Shown here one piece after another: positions 125 through 16,675 of a DNA stretch of 64,000 bases (its first letter is position 1; every line of letters begins with the position of its first letter). Source of the stretch: Rhodobacter sp. (GTDB lineage: Bacteria; Pseudomonadota; Alphaproteobacteria; Rhodobacterales; Rhodobacteraceae); contig JAIXRW010000025.1 in the NCBI GenBank assembly GCA_027484985.1, forward strand, positions 1-64,000, written 5' to 3'. The notes beneath the pieces were generated by a model, which was given only the letters and a program-made list of their open reading frames with translations, did no database searches and was not told where the DNA came from. A program made the translations under genes and the position numbers.

Positions 125-3100
125 CGGTTCATCCCCGCGTGGGCGGGGAACACGAGGCCGCGGCAGCAGTTGCCACCCCGATCAGCGGTTCATCCCCGCG
201 TGGGCGGGGAACACATCCGCGCCTGTCTCGAGGTGGCTGATTGGTCCGGTTCATCCCCGCGTGGGCGGGGAACACAGCAATGACTGGATCGAGTGGGATT
301 TTCACGCCGGTTCATCCCCGCGTGGGCGGGGAACACGGTAAGGTCGGTCATTGCGGTTTCCATCCAAGCGGTTCATCCCCGCGTGGGCGGGGAACACAGC
401 CCCGCACGATGGCGGGGCCGCTAGTCGATCGGTTCATCCCCGCGTGGGCGGGGAACACCTCCTGTTCCGGCGGATGACGTTGACGATCACCGGTTCATCC
501 CCGCGTGGGCGGGGAACACAGCAAGGAGGGTTCGCCCGTGGCGCGATTGATCGGTTCATCCCCGCGTGGGCGGGGAACACGATCGCCCCGCCCGAGGCCG
601 ACCGCGCCGCCGCGGTTCATCCCCGCGTGGGCGGGGAACACCGCTCTGGACCTCGGGCAGCATTGCTCGCAGCCGGTTCATCCCCGCGTGGGCGGGGAAC
701 ACGCTGGCGTGGTGTCTGGCATCGGGCGCTACGCCGGTTCATCCCCGCGTGGGCGGGGAACACCGCGCGAACATCGATGTGGCCAGCCCCTACCTCGGTT
801 CATCCCCGCGTGGGCGGGGAACACTGTTCGAGTTTGGCCAGTGCCAGCAGGGCGGGCGGTTCATCCCCGCGTGGGCGGGGAACACGAGGATGTGGACGCG
901 CAAGGCGTCTGGGTCCGCGGTTCATCCCCGCGTGGGCGGGGAACACTGTCTGTTCGTCTCTCTAAACTTGCTGCCGATCGGTTCATCCCCGCGTGGGCGG
1001 GGAACACCGGTGCGCCTGCCGGAATCGACAAGGGCTGGGCGGTTCATCCCCGCGTGGGCGGGGAACACTCAGCCGCGACCGGTTCAAGGATTTGGTAGGC
1101 CGGTTCATCCCCGCGTGGGCGGGGAACACCGCTTAACCATGCCGCAATGTCAGCCCCAACCCGGTTCATCCCCGCGTGGGCGGGGAACACAACCGTTGCG
1201 CTGGCCGGTCTGGCAGGCGTCGCGGTTCATCCCCGCGTGGGCGGGGAACACAGACCACAAGCGGGGAAATGTTGAGGACGGTGCGGTTCATCCCCGCGTG
1301 GGCGGGGAACACACCTCCGGTTCCGCCACCGGCCGGTTCAAGGACGGTTCATCCCCGCGTGGGCGGGGAACACGCCAGACTTGGTCAGCACCTCGCCCCG
1401 AACGGCGGTTCATCCCCGCGTGGGCGGGGAACACATTTTCCAGCGCCTCAGCCATGTCCTTGGCGGCGGTTCATCCCCGCGTGGGCGGGGAACACACGCC
1501 GATGGTCGGCCGCTCCGTGAGTGGGTGCGGTTCATCCCCGCGTGGGCGGGGAACACGGGCCGAACCTCTTGGGCGGAGCTGGTCAAAGCGGTTCATCCCC
1601 GCGTGGGCGGGGAACACCTGTCCAGAACACTCATACGACGATGACCTCCCGGTTCATCCCCGCGTGGGCGGGGAACACGAGCGTTGAGCGATGCCGCCCG
1701 CGCCTTCGCCCGGTTCATCCCCGCGTGGGCGGGGAACACGAGGGGGTGCGGCTGCATGACCTGCGCCACTCCGGTTCATCCCCGCGTGGGCGGGGAACAC
1801 GTGCGGTCACAGGTGATCTCGGCCTGCCAGGTCGGTTCATCCCCGCGTGGGCGGGGAACACTAGAACGAACACAGAACGTCAACAGGGCAGGGCGGTTCA
1901 TCCCCGCGTGGGCGGGGAACACCCTGTCCGTTCCACCACATAAGCAACGGTTGCCGGTTCATCCCCGCGTGGGCGGGGAACACTCCAGCATGACGGCCGC
2001 GATGCGACGGGCGGTCGGTTCATCCCCGCGTGGGCGGGGAACACTGCACCAGTGACCACACTGCAGGCCGACCCATCGGTTCATCCCCGCGTGGGCGGGG
2101 AACACTGTGCGGCGGCGACCGGTCGATCCGGAACCGCCGGTTCATCCCCGCGTGGGCGGGGAACACCGCGCCGCCTATGCCGCGCTGACCGATTCCGACG
2201 GTTCATCCCCGCGTGGGCGGGGAACACTCGCTCAGCTCCTCGGGGGCCGCAGGCACCGGCGGTTCATCCCCGCGTGGGCGGGGAACACCGGGGGCGTGCG
2301 GCTGGGCGGAACCTTGCGGCCGGTTCATCCCCGCGTGGGCGGGGAACACCTCGGCCCCGGCTGTCATCGTGATCGATGTCGCGGTTCATCCCCGCGTGGG
2401 CGGGGAACACAGCGCGTCCTGTTGCACGCCCCACATCGCCCGCGGTTCATCCCCGCGTGGGCGGGGAACACTTTTGCGCCACGTCGTCAGCGTAAGCCCC
2501 GCGCGGTTCATCCCCGCGTGGGCGGGGAACACGGCTTCGGACACGCCAGCCGCCAGCCGCGCGGCGGTTCATCCCCGCGTGGGCGGGGAACACATTGCTC
2601 TCCATCGCGGCGATGCGCTCAGCAACGGTTCATCCCCGCGTGGGCGGGGAACACTCATCCCAGAACGGGCTGTCGACGGCGATGATCGGTTCATCCCCGC
2701 GTGGGCGGGGAACACGCACCTGCGGAAGCCGATCAATCAGAAAAAGCCGGTTCATCCCCGCGTGGGCGGGGAACACCCGCGCTCAAGGCCGATGCCTATG
2801 CGTCACGGCGGTTCATCCCCGCGTGGGCGGGGAACACTCGGCCATCGCGGCGGCGATGCGGCGGGCGGTCGGTTCATCCCCGCGTGGGCGGGGAACACGA
2901 GCTCTGGCCCCGTGCCGTTGCCGACGTCGGCGGTTCATCCCCGCGTGGGCGGGGAACACGTCACTGGTGCAAATCGCAACGCCTGAACGCCCGGTTCATC
3001 CCCGCGTGGGCGGGGAACACTAATAGAGGTACTTCCGGTCTTCCGAGGTCTCCGGTTCATCCCCGCGTGGGCGGGGAACACGGACCATCAGGCCGCACGA

Positions 3101-6100
3101 CACGGGCATTCCGCGGTTCATCCCCGCGTGGGCGGGGAACACTCGAGCTGGTGCAAGGCAAGACCGACAAGGCCCGGTTCATCCCCGCGTGGGCGGGGAA
3201 CACGCGAACCAATTTCAGTTGCGCTTGCCAGACGGCGGTTCATCCCCGCGTGGGCGGGGAACACGCTTTCTCATCATCCGCAAGGGCCAGAATGTCCGGT
3301 TCATCCCCGCGTGGGCGGGGAACACGTTGCGGGCACGCGGGCGATACCCCGCACCAGCGGTTCATCCCCGCGTGGGCGGGGAACACCGGCGTGATCAGGC
3401 GCGGAAACCCGGCACCATCGGTTCATCCCCGCGTGGGCGGGGAACACGATACGGGCATGACCGCCGAATTGCCGCTGACCGGTTCATCCCCGCGTGGGCG
3501 GGGAACACTAGGTCTGAAACAGTTTCGGCAAACGACTTTGCGGTTCATCCCCGCGTGGGCGGGGAACACGCTATGTCATCGCAGCCGGGCGCGCAACACA
3601 CCGGTTCATCCCCGCGTGGGCGGGGAACACTCGATACCGGCAACCAAGCCTTGCCGCCAAATCGGTTCATCCCCGCGTGGGCGGGGAACACTCACCCTGC
3701 CAAGCGGGTTCAAAGATCATATCCGGTTCATCCCCGCGTGGGCGGGGAACACCTGCACGACCCCAAGCGCGCAAAGGACGACGCCGGTTCATCCCCGCGT
3801 GGGCGGGGAACACACCACATCGACCACATCATTCGTGATCATCGGCGGTTCATCCCCGCGTGGGCGGGGAACACGGCGGCAAATCGCACCAGACGTTGTT
3901 TCCCTGCGGTTCATCCCCGCGTGGGCGGGGAACACAACCCGCCGATCTGCCCTCACATGACGGTCGCCGGTTCATCCCCGCGTGGGCGGGGAACACGCCG
4001 CGCAAAAGTTTGGGTCGAAGGCGGCAAACGGTTCATCCCCGCGTGGGCGGGGAACACCGCGCCCCGCCGGGACATGACGGCCTCACCCCCGGTTCATCCC
4101 CGCGTGGGCGGGGAACACGCGTTTAGCTTTTCCTGAAGCGCCGCCGAAGACGGTTCATCCCCGCGTGGGCGGGGAACACGGTGTGAGTGTGGGGACGCCG
4201 CCCGCGCCACCCGGTTCATCCCCGCGTGGGCGGGGAACACGCAACACCGCCATGGTCTAGGCCTCGTTGGTGGGGTTCATCCCCGCGTGGGCGGGGAACA
4301 CGTCGAAATCACCGCAGCAACATCGATATCGTTCGGTTCATCCCCGCGTGGGCGGGGAACACCATTGCCAACCTCCGAGAGTTGCCCGAAACGCCGGTTC
4401 ATCCCCGCGTGGGCGGGGAACACTCACGATCCCGCCGGGGCCGATCCGGCAGGAGCGGTTCATCCCCGCGTGGGCGGGGAACACGTCATCATCGGAGCGG
4501 CGCTCGGCTCGATCCTCGGTTCATCCCCGCGTGGGCGGGGAACACGCTCGTGCAGCCCCTATTCCAACGCCTACGAGCGGTTCATCCCCGCGTGGGCGGG
4601 GAACACGAATGACGGATAGATGTTCGACTTCTGGAACACGGTTCATCCCCGCGTGGGCGGGGAACACTTCCCATCCGTCGATCCGCATCACCGCCCCCAC
4701 GGTTCATCCCCGCGTGGGCGGGGAACACTGCCTGGTATTCAAGATCGAGATTGCCCAGAACGGTTCATCCCCGCGTGGGCGGGGAACACTGTTTCACGGT
4801 GGCGGGGCTGACCTTGCCCGCCGGTTCATCCCCGCGTGGGCGGGGAACACCAGGTGCCGACCCTCGCGCTCGGCCCGTCGCGCGGTTCATCCCCGCGTGG
4901 GCGGGGAACACACTCATACGACGATGACCTCTCGTGCCGCCCGCGGTTCATCCCCGCGTGGGCGGGGAACACGCTATTTCTCCCGTCAAGACGCCGACCG
5001 GAACCGGTTCATCCCCGCGTGGGCGGGGAACACACGCCAGTTGCCGCCAGCATCGACATACGCGGCGGTTCATCCCCGCGTGGGCGGGGAACACGCGGAC
5101 GCGGGTCAGGATGGGGGTACTGGTCACGGTTCATCCCCGCGTGGGCGGGGAACACGTCTGAGAAACGCAAGCGATGAAGCGATGGTACGGTTCATCCCCG
5201 CGTGGGCGGGGAACACGGTGGCTCCCTTGTCTGCGGCGTTCCCGCCTCCGGTTCATCCCCGCGTGGGCGGGGAACACGCGGGGCCACGCGCCCTGACGCG
5301 CTGTCCGGCCGGTTCATCCCCGCGTGGGCGGGGAACACGAAGATCGGCGGGGTCGAATTGACCTATCCCGCGGTTCATCCCCGCGTGGGCGGGGAACACA
5401 AATTCGGCATCTGCCCCGCAATCGACAACGCCGGTTCATCCCCGCGTGGGCGGGGAACACTTCGGTGTCATCGTCGGCCCGCCGACCGCCACCGGTTCAT
5501 CCCCGCGTGGGCGGGGAACACTCCGTCGTCAGCCGCGCCAGTAGCGTGCCCAGCGGTTCATCCCCGCGTGGGCGGGGAACACCAAGTCCGGCCCCGTGCC
5601 GTTGCCAACGTCGGCGGTTCATCCCCGCGTGGGCGGGGAACACCTACGAAGCGCAGTGCGGTTGAGGTCGGCAACCGGTTCATCCCCGCGTGGGCGGGGA
5701 ACACTGCGCGGCAGCGGTTGTGATTGATTTCAATGTCGGTTCATCCCCGCGTGGGCGGGGAACACTCTTCAAACCGCGCCTTATGGGCAAGGCGCATCGG
5801 TTCATCCCCGCGTGGGCGGGGAACACGGATCGAGCGGACGAAGGACGCATTCCCCTATCGGTTCATCCCCGCGTGGGCGGGGAACACATCCGTGCCAGCC
5901 GGTTGCGGTGTACCCCGCGCGGTTCATCCCCGCGTGGGCGGGGAACACACCAGCCGCGCGATGCCGGTCGATCCGACCACCGGTTCATCCCCGCGTGGGC
6001 GGGGAACACTGAAGTGGTTCGCCCCATAGGTCGCGGCGATACGGTTCATCCCCGCGTGGGCGGGGAACACATTATCGCAAAGCGGATGCTCGTCCTACTG

Positions 6101-7961
6101 CGCGGTTCATCCCCGCGTGGGCGGGGAACACTGCTTTCCGTCAATCCGGGCGATGGTCTGCGCCGGTTCATCCCCGCGTGGGCGGGGAACACAGCGCGTC
6201 CTGCTGGATGCCCCACATGGCAACCGGTTCATCCCCGCGTGGGCGGGGAACACTGCGTGATCTGTCTGCGCAGATCATCGCCGCGCGGTTCATCCCCGCG
6301 TGGGCGGGGAACACTTGGCGGCTTGCGCCACGGTCGTCCCTTGGTGCGGTTCATCCCCGCGTGGGCGGGGAACACTCCCGCCAGAGCATCGGCAGTTGCT
6401 AGCGCCGCGGTTCATCCCCGCGTGGGCGGGGAACACCAGATCGCGCATGGCGGCAAGGCCAAGGGCAACGGTTCATCCCCGCGTGGGCGGGGAACACTCT
6501 TCACATCGGCTGGGGCTGTGATTTTAAGCCGGTTCATCCCCGCGTGGGCGGGGAACACGTCTCCTCGTCTTGGCGGGGGATACGACCGGACGGTTCATCC
6601 CCGCGTGGGCGGGGAACACACGTAGCGACAGAGCGGGAACGGACCCACATCCGGTTCATCCCCGCGTGGGCGGGGAACACACATACGTTTGCGCGGCGGC
6701 GGTGGTGATGGCCGGTTCATCCCCGCGTGGGCGGGGAACACGGCCGAACGTATCGCCGCGATGGAGGGCAACGCGGTTCATCCCCGCGTGGGCGGGGAAC
6801 ACGCCCCGCCCCGCCGGACCAGATCCGGCGGGGCCGGTTCATCCCCGCGTGGGCGGGGAACACAAAGCCGCGCTGGGCAAGCTCGAACCCGCCGACGGTT
6901 CATCCCCGCGTGGGCGGGGAACACCATCGCCGTGATCACCGCCATCGCAGGGCTGGCGGTTCATCCCCGCGTGGGCGGGGAACACCCCGACGCGCGGTTG
7001 GGGGCAACCCCGGACGTCGGTTCATCCCCGCGTGGGCGGGGAACACGCGACAGGGCGGGCAAGAGCGCGGTGGCGAGGCGGTTCATCCCCGCGTGGGCGG
7101 GGAACACGCCGGGCCGTCCACGACGGCATGGGCCAGCAGCGGTTCATCCCCGCGTGGGCGGGGAACACATCCTGTTCGCCCTGCTGAACCGCCTCGAAAC
7201 CGGTTCATCCCCGCGTGGGCGGGGAACACACCCTCGAAGCCTCGGGTGCGAACCCGCAGGACGGTTCATCCCCGCGTGGGCGGGGAACACCGATACCGCC
7301 AGCCAGCGCGGCCCATGCGTTGCGGTTCATCCCCGCGTGGGCGGGGAACACGACGCAAAGGACAGCCCGTCGAGTTCTGTTCTCGGTTCATCCCCGCGTG
7401 GGCGGGGAACACTGCGCGGCAGCGGTTGTGATTGCTTTCGCGGTCGGTTCATCCCCGCGTGGGCGGGGAACACCCGTGCGTCCTTTCCAGCGCGTCAGCC
7501 ATATCCGGTTCATCCCCGCGTGGGCGGGGAACACACATAGGTCTGCGCGGCGGCGGTGGTGATGGCCGGTTCATCCCCGCGTGGGCGGGGAACACAAATT
7601 CGGCATCTGCCCCGCAATCGACAGCGCCGGTTCATCCCCGCGTGGGCGGGGAACACCAACCGGCCCTGACGCCAAATCCCAGAAACCGCGGTTCATCCCC
7701 GCGTGGGCGGGGAACACCTGACCGCCGCCGAATCCGCGGGATGGCAAGCCGGTTCATCCCCGCGTGGGCGGGGAACACACGCCGTGGGGATTGCGGTAAT
7801 CCGCTTCCAACGGTTCATCCCCGCGTGGGCGGGGAACACTCCTCGGTGCTGGCCCGATAGGCCGCCGCCGCCGGTTCATCCCCGCGTGGGCGGGGAACAC
7901 TTTGGTGCCGAGCTGGACGATGCGACCGGCCCCGGTTCATCCCCGCGTGGGCGGGGAACAC
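125..7961 (-). CRISPR. Type I-E CRISPR array, 129 repeats and 128 spacers
   Basis: A 29-base repeat, on the + strand beginning CGGTTCATCCCCGC and ending GGGCGGGGAACAC, recurs every 61 bases with 32-base spacers. From the first repeat (125) to the last (7933) is exactly 128 periods. Repeat n starts at 125+61(n-1). The repeat is palindromic (CCCCGC/GCGGGG) and is the reverse complement of the usual I-E form, so the array is transcribed leftward. The predicted crRNA handle is ATGAACCG. The leader end is at 7961 beside cas2 and the old end is at 125. Only the repeat at 4273 was seen to differ. Several spacers are near-duplicates. The many open frames inside the array (peptides such as [10 protein letters not shown]) are artefacts of the repeat. 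Confidence 0.99.
4273..4301 (-). repeat. Variant CRISPR repeat number 69
   Basis: This in-phase repeat reads GGGTTCATCCCC at its left end instead of CGGTTCATCCCC. On the transcribed strand the last base of the crRNA 5' handle is changed (ATGAACCC instead of ATGAACCG). It is the only departure from the consensus that I saw in the array. Confidence 0.9.
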
Positions 7962-8020: not shown

Positions 8021-9248
<1,228 letters not shown>

Positions 9249-9252
<4 letters not shown>

Positions 9253-9967
9253 GCGCGCCGGATCAGCATCAGGCCGCAACCGTAGGATTTGGCCCGGCCA
9301 AAGCCCTGTGCGATCCGGTCAAGGAGCATGGCCGGTTCTGTTACCTCAAGCATACCGGACATTTCGAGGATGCCGAACTGTGGCCGCTTTGTCGCCCCAT
9401 GATGACCGGGCAGGGCCACGGTGGAGTAATCGGCAACCTCCGCCCCGATCAGCCGAAACCCCGAGCGCGTGCCCTGCCCGGCCATCCAATCCGCCGCCGC
9501 CGCCCGCGCGAGGTCCATGCGGTGGTGGGGACGCGCACTCAGTTCACCTTCCGGCAGCGATTTCTGGCCGGGAATGGGGTGCAGGCGGTCCATTACCAGA
9601 TCGATATGCCGCTTTTGCTCCTTGCCCGAGGCCGACAGCGTTCCTTTGCTTTCCGTCCGGGTCGCATTGGCGCGCAGGGCAAAGGTCAGCCGGTCCCCTG
9701 CCTGCAAGGCAGGGGCGAAGGGCTTGACCTCGGGCCGCTCGAACAGTTCCGATTCCTGCGGTGGACGGGCCGAAAGGGTCAGGAACACCCCTTCGCCTTC
9801 CGCGCGCCAAAGGAAATCGCGCTGCCTTTCCGGGCCGTCAGAGAAAACGGCCCACAGCAGGCGATGGTGGGCGTCCAGTCGCCGCCCATGATCCTGGGGG
9901 TTTAATAGGGCCTCGAGCGCACGGGCAGAAGGCGACCGCGACAGTTTCAGGCGCGAAAGATAGAGCG

Positions 9968-9971
<4 letters not shown>
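9249..9971 (-). CDS. cas6e: CRISPR RNA endonuclease Cas6e
   Basis: Cas6e cuts pre-crRNA at the base of the repeat stem and stays bound to the 3' stem-loop in Cascade. The 240-residue protein starts MTLYLSRLKL, has the paired histidines His35-His36 in the DAHHRLLWAVF stretch (the region of the catalytic His of the family) and ends with the glycine-rich RNA-binding loop GFGRAKSYGCGLMLIRR. Start and stop overlap the neighbouring cas5e and cas1 genes by four bases each. Its natural substrate here is the GTGTTCCCCGC...GCGGGG stem, and the degenerate repeats at 14046-14135 keep comparable stems. Confidence 0.96.
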
Positions 9972-12259
<2,288 letters not shown>

Positions 12260-12263
<4 letters not shown>

Positions 12264-13729
12264 GCTGCCTTGCCCTTTTTTGCCGGTTTTTCCATGCCAA
12301 GTCGGGCGAACAATTCCCCGCCTGCCTTGCCGTAACCCCTGAAGGTTGACCCGAGATAACCCCGTGCCTGAACCACCCGTGCAATCTGGTCGGTTTCGCG
12401 CTGGTCCAGCCCCTGCAACGCCAGATCGTCGAACTGCCTGAGCGCGTGCCGCTGAAGATGGCCCAGCCAGTGCACTGCCACTTCGGCAGGTGCCGCGCCG
12501 GACTTCAACGCGTCAAAGCAGGTCAGAAAGTCGGCTTCCGTGCGAAGGTAGAACGCCTCGCGCTCTGCCTCGCGCGCCTCGCCGCCCGCCAGAACCGGTT
12601 CCAACGCCCCCCGCAGCGACAACGCAGCCTGTTCCGCAGCAAGGATCATGCCCTGCACCATGGCAAGGGACGCTGGCGGCAGATCGACATAGGGTTGGGA
12701 GGACAGGGTGAAATCGCGGGCTTTCATGTTGTCCATCGCCCAACCGGCAACGAGAACGGTGACCTGCGCCCGACGATCCCGGCTTTGCCACGCGGTCAGA
12801 CAGGCTGCGCGGTCCCGAAGGCCATCGGCTGACCCGGCCAGAATTCCCAGCCAGTGGCGATAGCCGAAAAGACCGGCGCGGGGGTGGACGGGCAGCAGTT
12901 CTTCGCCGGCCTTCATGCGGTAATAGGGCGTCAACGGATGAACCCAGCCGCCGTAATTGGTGCCATAAGGGCGCTGGATCACCCCTGTGACACCCATTTC
13001 ATTTGCCACCAGACGCAGGCGGCGCGGCATTCCAAAAAACGCCTCGACTCCGAAGGTCTTGCCTTCGGGCGGGTGGGTCACCATGCCCTTGTCTGACACA
13101 CGCGTCGCGCGCATCCACGGCAGATCGATCATTTGGCCGGGCACGCCGTCCGGCACATTGGCCCAGACCATATCCCAAAGCCCGCGCCCCGGATCGACCA
13201 GCGTGAGCAAAGGCCCCCCGCCGCGGATCGAGGTCCGGTTGCCCGCCCCACCCGACGGAGCATGGGCCTGAAAGGTGTAAAGCGCCATTGCCGCCAAGGC
13301 CGGATCAAGCACAGCGTAGCGGTCACGATGGACCATCAGATCGGCATTGTTGCGCGCGGTATTGGCCCCCGCACTGTCGATGAAAAGCATGTCGGCGGGG
13401 TTCGCCTCCCCCTCCAGCGGTTCAAGGTCTTGCAGGAACAGCGGCCCCTCGCCCAGCAGGTTGAAAGCCGGGGCATAAGCGGCCAGACGCGAGCGCAGAC
13501 GGGCCGGATCGGGCGTGCGGCGGTCGTCCCAGTCTTCGACATGTTCGGGCGGATCGGCCAGATAGACCAGCCCGATCAGCAACTCGAGACAGGCCAGGTT
13601 CAAATCTGCGCGCGGCCAATCGGGCCTGATCACATCGCTGTCGGCCATCTGCCACGGGGCGATCACATGCCGCGATCCATCTTTCAGAAGGACGGGAATC
13701 CACGCGTCATCAATCAAGTTCAGGGACAA
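12260..13729 (-). CDS. cse1: Cascade large subunit Cse1 (CasA, Cas8e)
   Basis: Cse1 recognises the PAM and recruits Cas3. The protein shows the family N-terminus SLNLIDDAWIPVLLKDGS, a FLQDLEP region and the NRTSIRGGGPLLTLV segment. I place the start at a TTG (13729) because it gives MSLNLIDDAWIPV, the usual beginning, with GGAGG seven bases upstream. A GTG at 13735 is too close to that ribosome site, and an ATG at 13780 would add 17 residues unlike the family. The product is 489 residues with the TTG start. The gene begins the cse1-to-cas2 chain of overlapping genes and is preceded by the unusual 480-base regulatory gap. Confidence 0.93.
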
Positions 13730-13885
13730 ACACACGTCCTCCACACAATCTATAGGTGCATTGAACCCATCGTCCAGCACCGTGTAAAGCGAAGAAATCT
13801 GCGGGCAAGGCCACCGCCGCCCGCAGGGCTATTGTGCCCCAGCGCTTCAAGATGTATGAAATCAGGGCACGATAACTCCGGAAAT

Positions 13886-13910
13886 CTATGGAGCCATTCC
13901 ATTCTCCTTT
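13886..13910 (-). other. Strong ribosome site with a three-codon frame in the cse1 leader
   Basis: On the minus strand AAAGGAG (within 13903-13910) is followed after six bases by ATG GCT CCA TAG (13897-13886). This is a stronger ribosome site than that of most genes in the island, yet it serves only Met-Ala-Pro. A second ATG overlapping it (13902) opens a 50-codon frame but lies too close to the ribosome site. It could be a leader peptide, a CreT-like toxic mini-frame, or chance. Confidence 0.25.
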
Positions 13911-13917
13911 CTGGAAA

Positions 13918-13937
13918 AAGGTTGTTGGCGCAACCTT
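13918..13937 (-). terminator. Hairpin with T-run in the cse1 leader (possible attenuator)
   Basis: On the minus strand AAGGTTG and CAACCTT form a 7-base-pair stem with a six-base loop, and the stem end runs into TTTTT. The stem is AT-rich, so it would be a weak intrinsic terminator. A transcript from the promoter at 13992-14020 ending here would be only about 70 bases long. Confidence 0.4.
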
Positions 13938-13952
13938 GTTGTCGGTCACAGT

Positions 13953-13985
13953 AAGCCGGGATGATGCATCGCATCGTCCCGGCTT
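13953..13985 (+). terminator. Strong hairpin, terminator-like on the + strand
   Basis: A 15-base-pair stem (13953-13967 with 13971-13985, one T-G wobble, three-base loop) is followed by TTT on the + strand, so the T-run is five long including the end of the stem. It would stop antisense transcription heading toward cas3. On the minus strand the same hairpin lies at the very 5' end of the predicted cse1 transcript, where it could protect the RNA. Confidence 0.55.
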
Positions 13986-13991
13986 TTTGTT

Positions 13992-14020
13992 TGGTAGCCC
14001 ACACGCCAAAGTTGTGTCAA
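13992..14020 (-). promoter_or_regulatory. Probable cse1-cas2 operon promoter
   Basis: On the minus strand a perfect TTGACA -35 box (14015-14020) is followed after 17 bases by CTACCA (13992-13997), a poor -10. The same arrangement (perfect TTGACA, 17 bases, weak -10) is seen in the array leader. The -35 box lies inside the target site of the mini-CRISPR guide. Confidence 0.5.
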
Positions 14021-14045
14021 GCGAAATAGGTGATTTCTACCTGAG
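14014..14045 (-). other. Predicted target site (protospacer) of the mini-CRISPR guide
   Basis: On the minus strand this 32-base site begins CTCAGGTAGAAATCACC, against CTCAGTTGGAAATCACC in the guide. Fifteen of the first 17 positions match; the mismatches are at position 6 (a base that Cascade flips out) and position 8. Beyond position 17 only four bases agree. The three bases before it (14048-14046, minus strand) are AAG, the best-known I-E PAM. The distal half contains the TTGACA box. The partial match is the kind expected for binding without destruction. Confidence 0.7.
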
Positions 14046-14135
14046 CTTACAAAATCCCCGCAGACGGGGAACAGATATGGCCACGAGTCGGTGATTTCCA
14101 ACTGAGCGGTTCATCCCCCAAAAACGCGGGGCGGA
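14046..14135 (-). CRISPR. Degenerate two-repeat mini-CRISPR (CreR/CreA-like guide)
   Basis: Read on the minus strand, the upstream repeat (14135-14107) has lost its left half but keeps GGGGATGAACCG, including the whole 8-base 5' handle. Then come exactly 32 bases (14106-14075). The downstream repeat (14074-14046) begins CTGTTCCCCG and keeps a perfect 5-bp stem (CCCCG/CGGGG, tetraloop), while its handle part is lost and ends in AAG. Exactly the parts needed to mature one crRNA are conserved and the others have decayed. Transcription could come from cas3 read-through; I see no clear promoter at 14136-14209. Known relatives are the Cas-regulating mini-CRISPRs of type I systems. Confidence 0.75.
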
Positions 14136-14209: not shown

Positions 14210-16675
14210 CTAGCCAAACCGCAACCCGACATCTGCGCTGTAACTTAGCCCGTCGCAGATCGTGCCATCCTCGGCCACAGGGCAGACCGTGACCGTGTCC
14301 CGGCGCCACTCTGGCCAGTGTTTCTTCACCGCAGCAATGGCGGGGTGGCTTTGGTCCGGCAGGGGCAGCGCATCGAGACGGGTCTTGCGCGCCGATACCT
14401 CGGCCATCGGCCATGATCCGCCCCACGGGACAATCTGGCCGTCCTGCATCCGGGCAAGCGCCAGCCTGCGCGTCGCGGCCCCAAGGCGCGTGGGGTAATC
14501 GGCATCGCGCCCGTCTCCGCTGGCCTCGCGGTAGGATAGGCTTAGGTCGATCCGATTTTGCCACGCATGGGATTTATCGGCCAGCGCTTTCCCTTCCGCC
14601 TCCCGGTCCGCTTTTTCCAACGCGTCAGGCACCGGCAGCGCGCCTTCGCCGTGGACCGCTTCGATCAAGCCGCGCAGACCAGAGGGGGCAATGATGCTGC
14701 CCACGGAAAACAAGTGCTTTGCCGTGCGCCATTGCACCCCCTGCGGGTATGTATAGGCCCCCCTGTCGAGCACCCGCATCAGCCATTGGCCATCCGTCAC
14801 GGCATCCGGATCGGGTGACACAACATGCAGCACCGGCGCAGGCACCGGACGATTTGCCGCAGGGCGCAGGGCCATATGCCGCCACAGCCGCCCCGCCCGC
14901 TGGATCAGCCCTGCCATGGGGGCAAGGTCGCTGACCATCACGTCAAGGTCGGCATCGATCGAACTCTGGAAAATCTGTGTCGAAATGATAATTTTTCCGG
15001 CACGGTCAGTCCCCGCCTTGCCAAAACGGGCCAGCGCGGCCTGTTCAATCCGCTTGCGGTCCACCAATGCAAAGCGCGCGTGCAAAAGATCCGCCTCAAC
15101 CCCCACGTCCCGCAGGGCCTGCACCGCCGCGATGGCATCATCCACCGCGTTGCGAATCCACACACAGGCCGCCCCGGCCCGCGCCGCATCCGCCAGCAAC
15201 GCGACAGCGGCGGCGGTGTCAGGCACGCGCTGCACCTGAACCGGCCCCCGCGCGCCGGTTTCCTGCGGCAAATCCCGCCGTGCAGCACCGCCCGCAATCG
15301 ACAGCGCCGGATATGCCGGATCATCATCCCCGCCGCCATATGTCGCCATCAGCTTTTTGCGTAACGCCAAGGGCAGCGTCGCGGTCAGCAGGATCGCCGA
15401 CCCGCCTGCCTGCCGATGCAGTTGCAAAAGCCGCTCCAGCACCTCGTCGATATAGGGTTCGCCCAGCTCGTGAACCTCGTCCACGATCAGGATCTTCGAT
15501 GACAGCGCAAAATGGCGCAGCGTGTGGAATTTCGTCGGCAGGGCGGCCAACAGGGCCTGATCTATGGTGCCGACCCCGACATCGCCCATGAGCGCCCTTC
15601 GCCGCCCATCGGCCAGCCATGCCGTGCAAGACGGGTCTTCTGGCGCGTTTTCCTGCGCGTCGATCAAATCACGAAATTCATTCGACAACCCTGCCTTGCC
15701 GTGGGCGAGTGTCAGCATCGGCGGGGCGTCGAACAACCGGCCGATGACGCCATCATGTTTCAGCCGGCTGAACATTGCGTCTGAAGTGGCCGTGGTGGGC
15801 AGAGCCACGAACAGCCCGCGCCCCTTGCCCGCGCAAAGCATCCGCTGTGCAAGGATCAGTGCTGCCTCTGTCTTGCCCGCACCGGTTTCATCTTCGATGA
15901 CCGCAAGCATCGGCCCATCCGGCAAGGCGATTTCGGCACAGGCCGACTGCATCGGGCGCAGGTTGAAGGTGTAAAGCCGATCCGCTCTTGGCCCCACTCC
16001 GGCAAGACCGGCCTGTTGGACCGCAACAGCGGCTTTCGCACGCGCCAGCATCAGGTATTGGCCCAAGGGCATCACCCGCTGTTCGGCCCGAAACCAATCG
16101 GGATTCGATCCGACCCAATCCGCCGCCGACACCAGACCGGGCAACCACCACGAAAGCGCCAACGCGTCTTCGCGCGAGACCGCTTGCAAGGACGCGTCAG
16201 GCCAGAGGTCAAGGAAAGCCGCAATGACGGCGCGCGCGTCCCGCACCGCCTCGGCGCCGGTCACCGAAAGGATTTGTTCATCGTTGCCCGACCATTTCGA
16301 CGGTTGGCCATGATGCCCCGCAACTGCCGCATAAAGCGGTTCTCGTCGCAACCGTTTTGATCCAAGGCGCCCGGCGAGAATATCATCATGCGCGTTCAAT
16401 AGAACTTCGGTCACACACCAATGCGAATTGGACTGGTAGGGCTGCCCCCTCAGCATCTTTCGAAACTGAGCGTTCACCTTGCCCAGATCATGCAGTGCCG
16501 TCAGCAGGATAAGCGCATCGCGCGTTGCTGCGTCAAATGCGAACGGCCCAATCAAGATTTCGGCCACAGCCGCCACGTCCAGCATGTGGTAGATGGCGGG
16601 GTGTTCGGGATCGGCAGGTGTCGCGGCGCTTTTGCCCGGCCATGACAGAAGATTTTCCAGCAACAAACACCTCAC
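14210..16675 (-). CDS. cas3: CRISPR-associated helicase/nuclease Cas3 (type I-E)
   Basis: Cas3 is recruited to Cascade R-loops to unwind and shred target DNA. The 821-residue protein has an N-terminal HD nuclease with His25 and His30 in HPAIYH, His62-Asp63 in LTALHDLGK and His121-His122 in VAGHHG. An SF2 helicase follows with Walker A GAGKT (265-269), DEVH (399-402) and TATLP (431-435). The start at 16675 is a GTG with no good ribosome site; TTG codons at 16666 and 16663 lie better placed behind a GAGG. It has its own promoter and is separated from cse1 by the regulatory gap, so cas3 and Cascade can be controlled separately. Confidence 0.96.
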   Translation of the reverse strand: MRCLLLENLLSWPGKSAATPADPEHPAIYHMLDVAAVAEILIGPFAFDAATRDALILLTALHDLGKVNAQFRKMLRGQPYQSNSHWCVTEVLLNAHDDILAGRLGSKRLRREPLYAAVAGHHGQPSKWSGNDEQILSVTGAEAVRDARAVIAAFLDLWPDASLQAVSREDALALSWWLPGLVSAADWVGSNPDWFRAEQRVMPLGQYLMLARAKAAVAVQQAGLAGVGPRADRLYTFNLRPMQSACAEIALPDGPMLAVIEDETGAGKTEAALILAQRMLCAGKGRGLFVALPTTATSDAMFSRLKHDGVIGRLFDAPPMLTLAHGKAGLSNEFRDLIDAQENAPEDPSCTAWLADGRRRALMGDVGVGTIDQALLAALPTKFHTLRHFALSSKILIVDEVHELGEPYIDEVLERLLQLHRQAGGSAILLTATLPLALRKKLMATYGGGDDDPAYPALSIAGGAARRDLPQETGARGPVQVQRVPDTAAAVALLADAARAGAACVWIRNAVDDAIAAVQALRDVGVEADLLHARFALVDRKRIEQAALARFGKAGTDRAGKIIISTQIFQSSIDADLDVMVSDLAPMAGLIQRAGRLWRHMALRPAANRPVPAPVLHVVSPDPDAVTDGQWLMRVLDRGAYTYPQGVQWRTAKHLFSVGSIIAPSGLRGLIEAVHGEGALPVPDALEKADREAEGKALADKSHAWQNRIDLSLSYREASGDGRDADYPTRLGAATRRLALARMQDGQIVPWGGSWPMAEVSARKTRLDALPLPDQSHPAIAAVKKHWPEWRRDTVTVCPVAEDGTICDGLSYSADVGLRFG

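What the first reader, a model, noticed from the sequence alone, without database searches (positions are those of the whole stretch)
14014..14048. The mini-CRISPR guide has a PAM-bearing target over the -35 box of the cse1 promoter
Next to the mini-CRISPR lies a sequence matching the guide at 15 of the first 17 positions (CTCAGGTAGAAATCACC against CTCAGTTGGAAATCACC), preceded by AAG, the classical I-E PAM. One mismatch is at position 6, which Cascade does not read; the other is at position 8. The distal half is unmatched, which should allow binding but not efficient Cas3 cleavage. The site covers TTGACA (14015-14020), so bound Cascade would block the promoter of cse1-cas2. This would be an autorepression loop that senses free Cascade and loosens when anti-CRISPRs or abundant crRNAs occupy it.
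Basis: partly seen in the sequence, partly recalled or inferred. Interest (0 to 1): 0.95.

Follow-up and report, generated by a model that had tools for sequence, protein, structure and literature searches.

The report
Guide RNA silencing a toxin minigene
A tiny CRISPR-like guide next to the cas genes appears to hold off a promoter, but the promoter most likely makes a small toxic RNA that punishes loss of the CRISPR system, rather than the CRISPR genes themselves.

Summary
On the minus strand a degenerate two-repeat mini-CRISPR carries a 32-nt guide, and beside it an AAG-flanked site matches 15 of its first 17 positions (mismatches 6 and 8) over a TTGACA. Among 88 cas3-cse1 upstream regions, 23 guide/target pairs were kept; guides are unrelated between species (one close pair), yet each fits its own target (seed 6.9/7, swapped 2.1/7), with mismatches gathering at positions 6 and 12. 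In 19 of 23, the window included, a CreT-like RNA of about 160 nt lies between the targeted promoter and cse1: hairpins, Shine-Dalgarno and, in 16 of 19, a clean mini-ORF with rare codons (window: ATG GCT CCA TAG). In the window a terminator-like hairpin follows, and cse1 has its own candidate promoter, kept in two same-genus relatives without the module. Four of 23 put the target directly before cse1. Best reading: a type I-E CreTA toxin-antitoxin RNA module guarding Cascade, not CreR autorepression of cse1. However, 12 of 19 such loci show no separate cse1 promoter box, so shared control is possible there. Nothing was tested at the bench.

The parts
14107..14135 (-). psiR1, degenerate repeat; last 8 nt (ATGAACCG, the crRNA 5' handle) identical to the array repeat
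   Evidence: 7/21 + 8/8 identity to the array repeat, ungapped
14075..14106 (-). guide (psi-spacer), 32 nt, of the CreA-like RNA
14046..14074 (-). psiR2, degenerate repeat; keeps the CCCCG/CGGGG hairpin, handle lost (14/21 + 2/8 ungapped)
14046..14048 (-). AAG, PAM of the target (last 3 nt of psiR2 as drawn here)
   Evidence: 21 of 23 kept pairs have AAG and 2 have ATG
14014..14045 (-). target protospacer, 15/17 match to the guide
14015..14020 (-). -35 box TTGACA of the putative creT promoter, inside the target
   Evidence: best -35-like hexamer lies 22-30 nt after the target start in 11 of 19 CreTA-type loci
13829..13988 (-). CreT-like RNA, match to covariance model R1
   Evidence: 53.9 bits; the window is one of the 14 training rows
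13953..13985 (-). hairpin 1 at the predicted transcript start (also terminator-like when read on the + strand)
13918..13937 (-). hairpin 2 by sequence (AAGGTTG...CAACCTT); not in the window's own minimum-energy fold
   Evidence: sequence; covariation of the family; pairs this stretch otherwise
13904..13909 (-). Shine-Dalgarno AAGGAG
13886..13897 (-). mini-ORF ATG GCT CCA TAG (rarest Ala and rarest Pro codon of the host sample)
13831..13873 (-). hairpin 3 after the stop codon
13799..13826 (-). hairpin 4, terminator-like, between creT and cse1
13760..13788 (-). candidate cse1 promoter: TTTACA, 17 nt, TTCAAT
   Evidence: TTTACA and surroundings conserved in same-genus loci L004/L005 without the module; the -10 is weak and differs between them, and the strict scan does not pass it
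12260..13729 (-). cse1 (cas8e), start taken as TTG with GGAGG 13742-13738
   Evidence: TIGR02547; start chosen by reading
14210..16675 (-). cas3
   Evidence: TIGR01587 and TIGR01596 above cut-off
8021..12263 (-). cse2, cas7, cas5e, cas6e, cas1e, cas2e
   Evidence: best NCBIfam hit of each above its cut-off
125..7961 (-). main CRISPR array, 129 repeats, 128 spacers all 32 nt

Best explanation
It is a CreTA-type toxin-antitoxin RNA module of a type I-E system. creA (psiR1-guide-psiR2) is probably transcribed with, or just after, cas3 and cut by Cas6e into a crRNA-like guide. Cascade carrying it binds the AAG-flanked target through seed pairing and covers the -35 box, so the promoter stays off; poor distal pairing should spare the site from Cas3. 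The promoter makes a ~160-nt RNA with a stable 5' hairpin, a Shine-Dalgarno and a minigene of rare codons (ATG GCT CCA TAG). If Cascade or the guide is lost or blocked, this RNA would be translated hard and tie up a scarce tRNA (here perhaps tRNA-Pro UGG) or ribosomes, arresting growth and so punishing loss of Cascade. Shown by sequence: the anatomy, guide-target coevolution, a conserved RNA fold and in-frame rare codons across the family. Inferred: transcription, processing, repression, toxicity.
For: (1) 23 kept guide/target pairs among 88 regions; own seeds 6.9/7, swapped 2.1/7; no mismatch at positions 1-5, 7 or 11 in any of 23, 17 of 23 mismatched at 6 and 14 of 23 at 12 (the filter itself allowed only one seed mismatch and at most five at read positions of the first 17). 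21 of the 23 are in quality classes (no seed mismatch and at most 3 others, or one seed mismatch and at most 2 read mismatches in all) that 4 of 1760 shuffled regions reached. (2) 19 of 23 carry a CreT-like stretch between target and cse1; cas3-cse1 gap median 341 in the 15 of these that were measured, 86 in 57 regions without a pair. (3) Model R1, built from 14 of the 19, finds held-out L102 at 59.7 bits and L091 at 25.5. (4) Hairpins 1 and 2 covary: 26 double changes against 10.9 in shuffles; window RNA z -6.1. (5) 16 hand-picked mini-ORFs: 26 of 71 in-frame codons rare, against 5 of 87 and 10 of 87 out of frame; base-shuffle P 5e-5. (6) In the host sample GCT is the rarest Ala codon and CCA the rarest Pro codon; one tRNA-Pro(UGG) gene among 45 tRNA genes of the draft genome. 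(7) The anatomy matches published CreTA (PMC8501985; PMC10097628).
Against: The window's member is weaker than most: a mismatch at seed position 8 (2 of 23), a poor -10 (CTACCA), only two sense codons, and CCA (2.65 per 1000) is only just rarer than CCT (3.07). Hairpin 2 is absent from the window's minimum-energy fold. The rare-codon set was fixed after seeing the ORFs and the ORFs were chosen by eye; L083, L091 and L095 have no clean mini-ORF. Of the 5 CreTA-type loci not used to build R1, two score weakly (L080 E 0.01, L095 E 0.19) and L025 is missed; two loci without a pair score 15-16.5 bits (L059, L076). L025 and L118 have weak guide matches that shuffles also reach. 12 of 19 CreTA-type loci have no TT[GT]AC box 35-115 nt before cse1, so creT and cse1 may share one promoter there. 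No toxicity, RNA or binding data.
Confidence: 0.75

Rival explanations
1. CreR autorepression: the targeted promoter is the main promoter of cse1-cas2 and bound Cascade limits its own synthesis.
For: PAM, seed and -35 coverage. CreR is described for I-B, I-E and V-A (PMC13131331, one passage). Four loci (L065, L066, L071, L093) put the target 89-104 nt before cse1 with no creT between; three of the four have a TTGAC box there, L071 has none.
Against: In the window the target starts about 315 nt before cse1, with a CreT-like RNA, a terminator-like hairpin and a nearer candidate promoter in between. The RNA and its rare-codon ORF would be unexplained.
Confidence: 0.1
2. Both at once: the promoter makes CreT, and a share of transcripts reads through into cse1, so one Cascade-guide complex controls a toxin and the cas operon.
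For: 12 of 19 CreTA-type loci have no TT[GT]AC box 35-115 nt before cse1, and in two of the other seven (L079, L080) the box lies in hairpin 3 by eye. The window's terminator-like hairpin has a weak T tail (ATTTCTT).
Against: The window itself keeps a nearer candidate cse1 promoter. T-run terminators precede cse1 in L027, L033 and L051 (by eye).
Confidence: 0.2
3. A decaying module: formerly CreTA, now with weakened seed, -10 and ORF.
For: Position-8 mismatch and poor -10. Long gaps with repeat scraps but no guide/target pair exist in L030, L034 and L041 (by eye).
Against: Pairing runs to position 17 with one mismatch at a read position; hairpins 1 and 3 and the SD are kept; model score 53.9 bits.
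Confidence: 0.12
4. Attenuator leader: the rare-codon mini-ORF and hairpins regulate transcription into cse1 according to tRNA supply.
For: Short ORF with rare codons between hairpins, upstream of an operon.
Against: The ORFs are shorter than the leader peptides of classical attenuators (recalled), the rare codon differs between species, and the window has a separate cse1 promoter candidate.
Confidence: 0.05

Closest known systems
CreTA of Halobacterium hubeiense and Haloarcula hispanica (type I-B; PMC8501985, parts 1-4 of 6 read)
   Same: Two divergent psi-repeats in most creA genes, psiR1 keeping the 5' handle and psiR2 the 3' part; PAM plus seed pairing with positions 6 and 12 free; toxin RNA with mini-ORF of rare codons (AGA or AUA) and a stem-loop.
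   Different: Type I-E, mostly Alphaproteobacteria; creA lies upstream of creT, not downstream, and mostly abuts the cas3 end; rare codons of several kinds; further hairpins. Direct sequence comparison with these modules was not made.
CreTA of Acinetobacter (type I-F; PMC10097628, section 6 and passages read)
   Same: Sits in a ~400-bp gap between cas3 and the first Cascade gene; SD plus mini-ORF downstream of the target.
   Different: There creA and the mini-ORF are divergent and the ORF is a conserved 33 bp; here they are codirectional and the ORFs have 2-7 sense codons (12 in L049).
CreR (cas-regulating RNAs; primary 2023 paper not held, known here from passages of three reviews and recall)
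   Same: Mini-CRISPR guide partly complementary to a promoter at the cas locus.
   Different: CreR targets a cas promoter and is generally not coupled to a toxin gene (PMC12737573); here a toxin-like RNA intervenes.
Lambda bar minigenes (AUG AUA UAA recalled; titles seen in the reference list of PMC8012679)
   Same: Very short ORFs with a rare codon before the stop, e.g. L056 ATG GGT CCG ATA TAA.
   Different: Phage genes with no CRISPR control.

Membership tests
CreTA | crRNA-like gene with two degenerate repeats, 5' handle kept in psiR1 and hairpin in psiR2 | tested here: met
   psiR1 handle 8/8; psiR2 keeps the CCCCG/CGGGG stem (in the fold of creA alone, the two repeats pair with each other)
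[quoted passage not shown]
   one seed mismatch, at position 8, in the window
CreTA | small RNA with strong translation start, mini-ORF with rare codons and stable stem-loop downstream of the target | tested here: met
   weaker in the window than in most
CreTA | linked to a Cascade-encoding locus | tested here: met
   complete I-E gene set. R1 matched 6 of 394 family genomes: three strong hits at cas loci, three weak ones (24-25 bits) that look like chance by eye; it missed the modules of G177 and G462, so sensitivity is limited. 1 of 289 class genomes matched, the window's own
CreTA | the RNA is toxic and Cascade plus guide represses it | not testable with these tools
   needs expression assays
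CreR | guide targets the promoter of a cas operon | tested here: inconclusive
   nearer candidate cse1 promoter conserved without the module; read-through not excluded
CreR | generally not coupled to a toxin gene | tested here: not met
   CreT-like RNA with mini-ORF between target and cse1; its toxicity is inferred
Ordinary CRISPR mini-array | near-identical repeats | tested here: not met
   psiR1 15/29 and psiR2 16/29 ungapped against the array repeat

The most novel reading that the evidence does not exclude
One Cascade-guide complex controls a bifunctional transcript: a rare-codon minigene RNA that is a toxin when over-made and, by read-through, the leader of the Cascade operon. Its short ORF reports rare-tRNA supply to cas expression, so phage attack on Cascade or on tRNAs raises both Cas synthesis and growth arrest.
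Probability: 0.08. Interest if true: 0.9.

Novelty: new variant of a known kind. Interest (0 to 1): 0.62.

Why it matters
CreTA modules are hard to find because both RNAs drift fast, as PMC8501985 states. Here 19 loci in one genomic slot give a way to recognise a CreT RNA family by structure: a covariance model, hairpin covariation, and a rare codon that changes from species to species (ATA, TTA, AGA, AGG, ACA, TCA, CTA, CCA). They also let toxin-bearing and direct-target (CreR-like) forms be compared at one position. I saw no alphaproteobacterial type I-E CreTA in the listings or in the passages read, but the 2021 Science and 2023 Cell Host Microbe papers are not held and supplements could not be read, so an earlier listing is possible.

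Tried and rejected
Rejected: chance match. Rejected as the main reading: cse1 promoter repression. No stretch of viral contigs matched the Cse1 peptide patterns. Rfam at E up to 1 gave one weak match, YrlB on the + strand (E 0.12, 21.6 bits against a gathering score of 97). Of 26 detector hits among 88 regions, three (L054, L090, L121) were dropped because the would-be guide lies in cas3 coding sequence; I first dropped L065 too, but it has real repeats and a target just before a TTGACA, so restores it (23 kept). One search's codon table came from loosely chosen ORFs and made ATA look common in the window; with a GC-by-position filter (25 genes, 11,720 codons) replaced it for the window only. 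broke off and its rest was redone; the cas3 stop scored for L028 there and is wrong (spurious frame). RNAalifold alone found 8 pairs on the MAFFT alignment. Only regions with identical 60-nt tails were removed as duplicates, so some of the 88 may still be near-duplicates.

Full report
What was claimed and what is there. Both exist on the minus strand where stated. In transcription sense the order is cas3, psiR1, guide, psiR2, AAG, target with TTGACA, then 284 nt to the cse1 start codon, taken as TTG at 13729. psiR1 keeps all 8 nt of the crRNA 5' handle and psiR2 keeps the hairpin. The locus is a complete type I-E system: cas3, cse1, cse2, cas7, cas5e, cas6e, cas1e, cas2e and a 128-spacer array.

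Is it more than chance? The guide and this site are the only matches to the 17-mer within two mismatches in the 3.6-Mb draft genome. To test function by comparison I collected cse1 loci: 20 relatives among 394 family genomes, the best 80 of 171 related stretches in the named genome collection, and further ones from order and genus. After removal of identical tails, 88 upstream regions were scanned for a handle-like octamer followed by a guide whose first 17 nt match a PAM-flanked site downstream. 26 had a hit; three lie in cas3 coding sequence and were dropped, leaving 23 (my first count also dropped L065 and had 22). Guides are unrelated between species (mean 5.2 of 17 identical; one close pair, L083/L091), yet each fits its own target: seed 6.9 of 7 against 2.1 when swapped. 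None of 23 mismatches at positions 1-5, 7 or 11; 17 mismatch at position 6 and 14 at position 12; PAMs are AAG (21) or ATG (2). The detector is loose: 192 of 1760 shuffled regions passed at some level, and 4 of 88 real regions read on the other strand did, all weakly. But 21 of the 23 real pairs fall in quality classes reached by 4 of 1760 shuffles; L025 and L118 do not and rest on their context. Positions 6 and 12 are those that PMC8501985 reports as not pairing.

What does the promoter make? The cas3-cse1 gap is a median 341 nt in the 15 measured CreTA-type loci and 86 in 57 regions without a pair; 19 of those 57 have gaps of 160 or more, some with arrays or relics. In 19 of 23 the extra length holds an RNA of 140-173 nt (18 segments cut): hairpin 1 at the expected start, hairpin 2, Shine-Dalgarno, mini-ORF, stop, hairpin 3 and often a fourth, terminator-like hairpin. 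Hairpins 1 and 2 covary on a MAFFT alignment of 14 (26 double changes against 10.9 shuffled; 77% of cells paired against 27-44% when slid; one of five measures, further pair types, is not above shuffles). The 18 segments fold better than shuffles in the mean (z -4.2, from -0.9 to -12.3). A covariance model from 14 of the 19 finds held-out L102 (59.7 bits) and L091 (25.5); L080 (E 0.01) and L095 (E 0.19) are weak and L025 is missed; L059 and L076, without a pair, score 16.5 and 15.1 bits. In 394 family genomes three strong hits occur, all at cas loci, and three weak ones on what look like ordinary genes; the modules of G177 and G462 were missed.

The mini-ORFs. Sixteen of the 19 loci have a clean one, among them GTG CAT AAA ATA CCC TGA (L027), ATG GGT CCG ATA TAA (L056), ATG AGA ATC TTA ATA GCC TAA (L079), ATG ACA ACA TAA (L080), ATG AGG GCG ACA TAG (L102), ATG GCC CAA TTA TTA TTA CAA AAC TGA (L025) and, in the window, ATG GCT CCA TAG. 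Of 71 in-frame sense codons 26 belong to eight rare codons, against 5 of 87 and 10 of 87 in the other frames; shuffling bases inside each ORF gives 13.3 on average and reaches 26 with P 5e-5. Host usage would give about 2. The set of eight was chosen after looking, and the ORFs by eye, which inflates this. In the window's host GCT and CCA are the rarest codons of their families (3.1 and 2.65 per 1000, CCT being 3.07; 25 genes), and a single tRNA-Pro(UGG) gene was found among 45 tRNA genes of the draft genome.

Is cse1 under this promoter? Two same-genus genomes without the module keep about 90 nt before and into cse1, including TTTACA (83-85% identity over 90-92 nt). The window has this box at 13788, downstream of a terminator-like hairpin (13826-13799). 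So cse1 here most likely has its own promoter, although neither promoter passes the strict sigma-70 scan. A TT[GT]AC box lies 35-115 nt before cse1 in 37 of 63 regions without a pair, 7 of 19 CreTA-type loci and 3 of 4 direct-target loci (with L065 counted as without, expected 10.8 of 64 and 2.5 of 22 from shuffles). So 12 of 19 CreTA-type loci, or 14 if boxes inside hairpin 3 of L079 and L080 are set aside, lack an obvious separate promoter, and there read-through from the toxin promoter is plausible.

Filing. The anatomy matches CreTA: psiR1/psiR2, seed pairing, PAM, toxin RNA with start signal, rare codons and stem-loop (PMC8501985), in the same kind of gap, cas3 to the first Cascade gene, as in Acinetobacter I-F (PMC10097628). 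Toxicity and Cascade-dependent repression could not be tested.

Added observations. creA mostly abuts cas3: the guide starts -4 to +44 nt from the scored cas3 stop in 17 of 18 loci; the 18th, L028, was mis-scored by a spurious frame and reads 14 by eye. CreA may thus come from the 3' end of cas3 mRNA, which would tie the antitoxin to cas3 transcription; in the window the gap is about 100 nt. In most CreTA-type loci the target begins at or soon after psiR2 (by eye; L080 and L025 are farther), where a second spacer would sit, which suggests that the pair arose by duplication of a repeat-spacer unit; this is inference.

Weak points. The window's own member has a seed mismatch at 8, a poor -10 and a very short ORF, and may be weak or decaying. 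All function is inferred.

Noticed in passing
window 7627 (- strand spacer; near-twin at 5431) and 15307 in cas3: A main-array spacer matches cas3 perfectly over its first 17 nt, but the site is preceded by CCG, the repeat's own end, not a PAM.
   Followed up: partly
window 125-7961: 129 repeats with 128 spacers, every one exactly 32 nt; several near-duplicate spacers (7566/6712, 7444/5736, 5614/2930 and others).
   Followed up: no
L065, L066, L071, L093: Direct-target loci: guide and PAM-flanked target 89-104 nt before cse1 with no CreT between, as expected of CreR; L065 holds a short array of several repeats there.
   Followed up: partly
L030, L034, L041: Long cas3-cse1 gaps with psi-repeat scraps but no guide/target pair; look like relics of the module (by eye).
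   Followed up: no
L076 2520-2686: Bombella mellum gap with a weak model match (15.1 bits) and ATG AAG TAA behind a strong Shine-Dalgarno, but no guide/target pair found in the 620 nt scanned.
   Followed up: no
L027, L049, L056, L100, L102 and others: The cas3 stop codon lies inside or next to psiR1 or the guide, so creA is carved into the cas3 3' end.
   Followed up: partly
L102, L004, L005 upstream of cse1: A palindrome like GTGACAGAATCTGTCAC (or close variants) precedes the cse1 promoter region; perhaps a protein operator (by eye).
   Followed up: no
window 13953-13985, + strand: Hairpin 1 followed by a T run is also terminator-like on the + strand; I did not look for a + strand transcript that it would end.
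   Followed up: no
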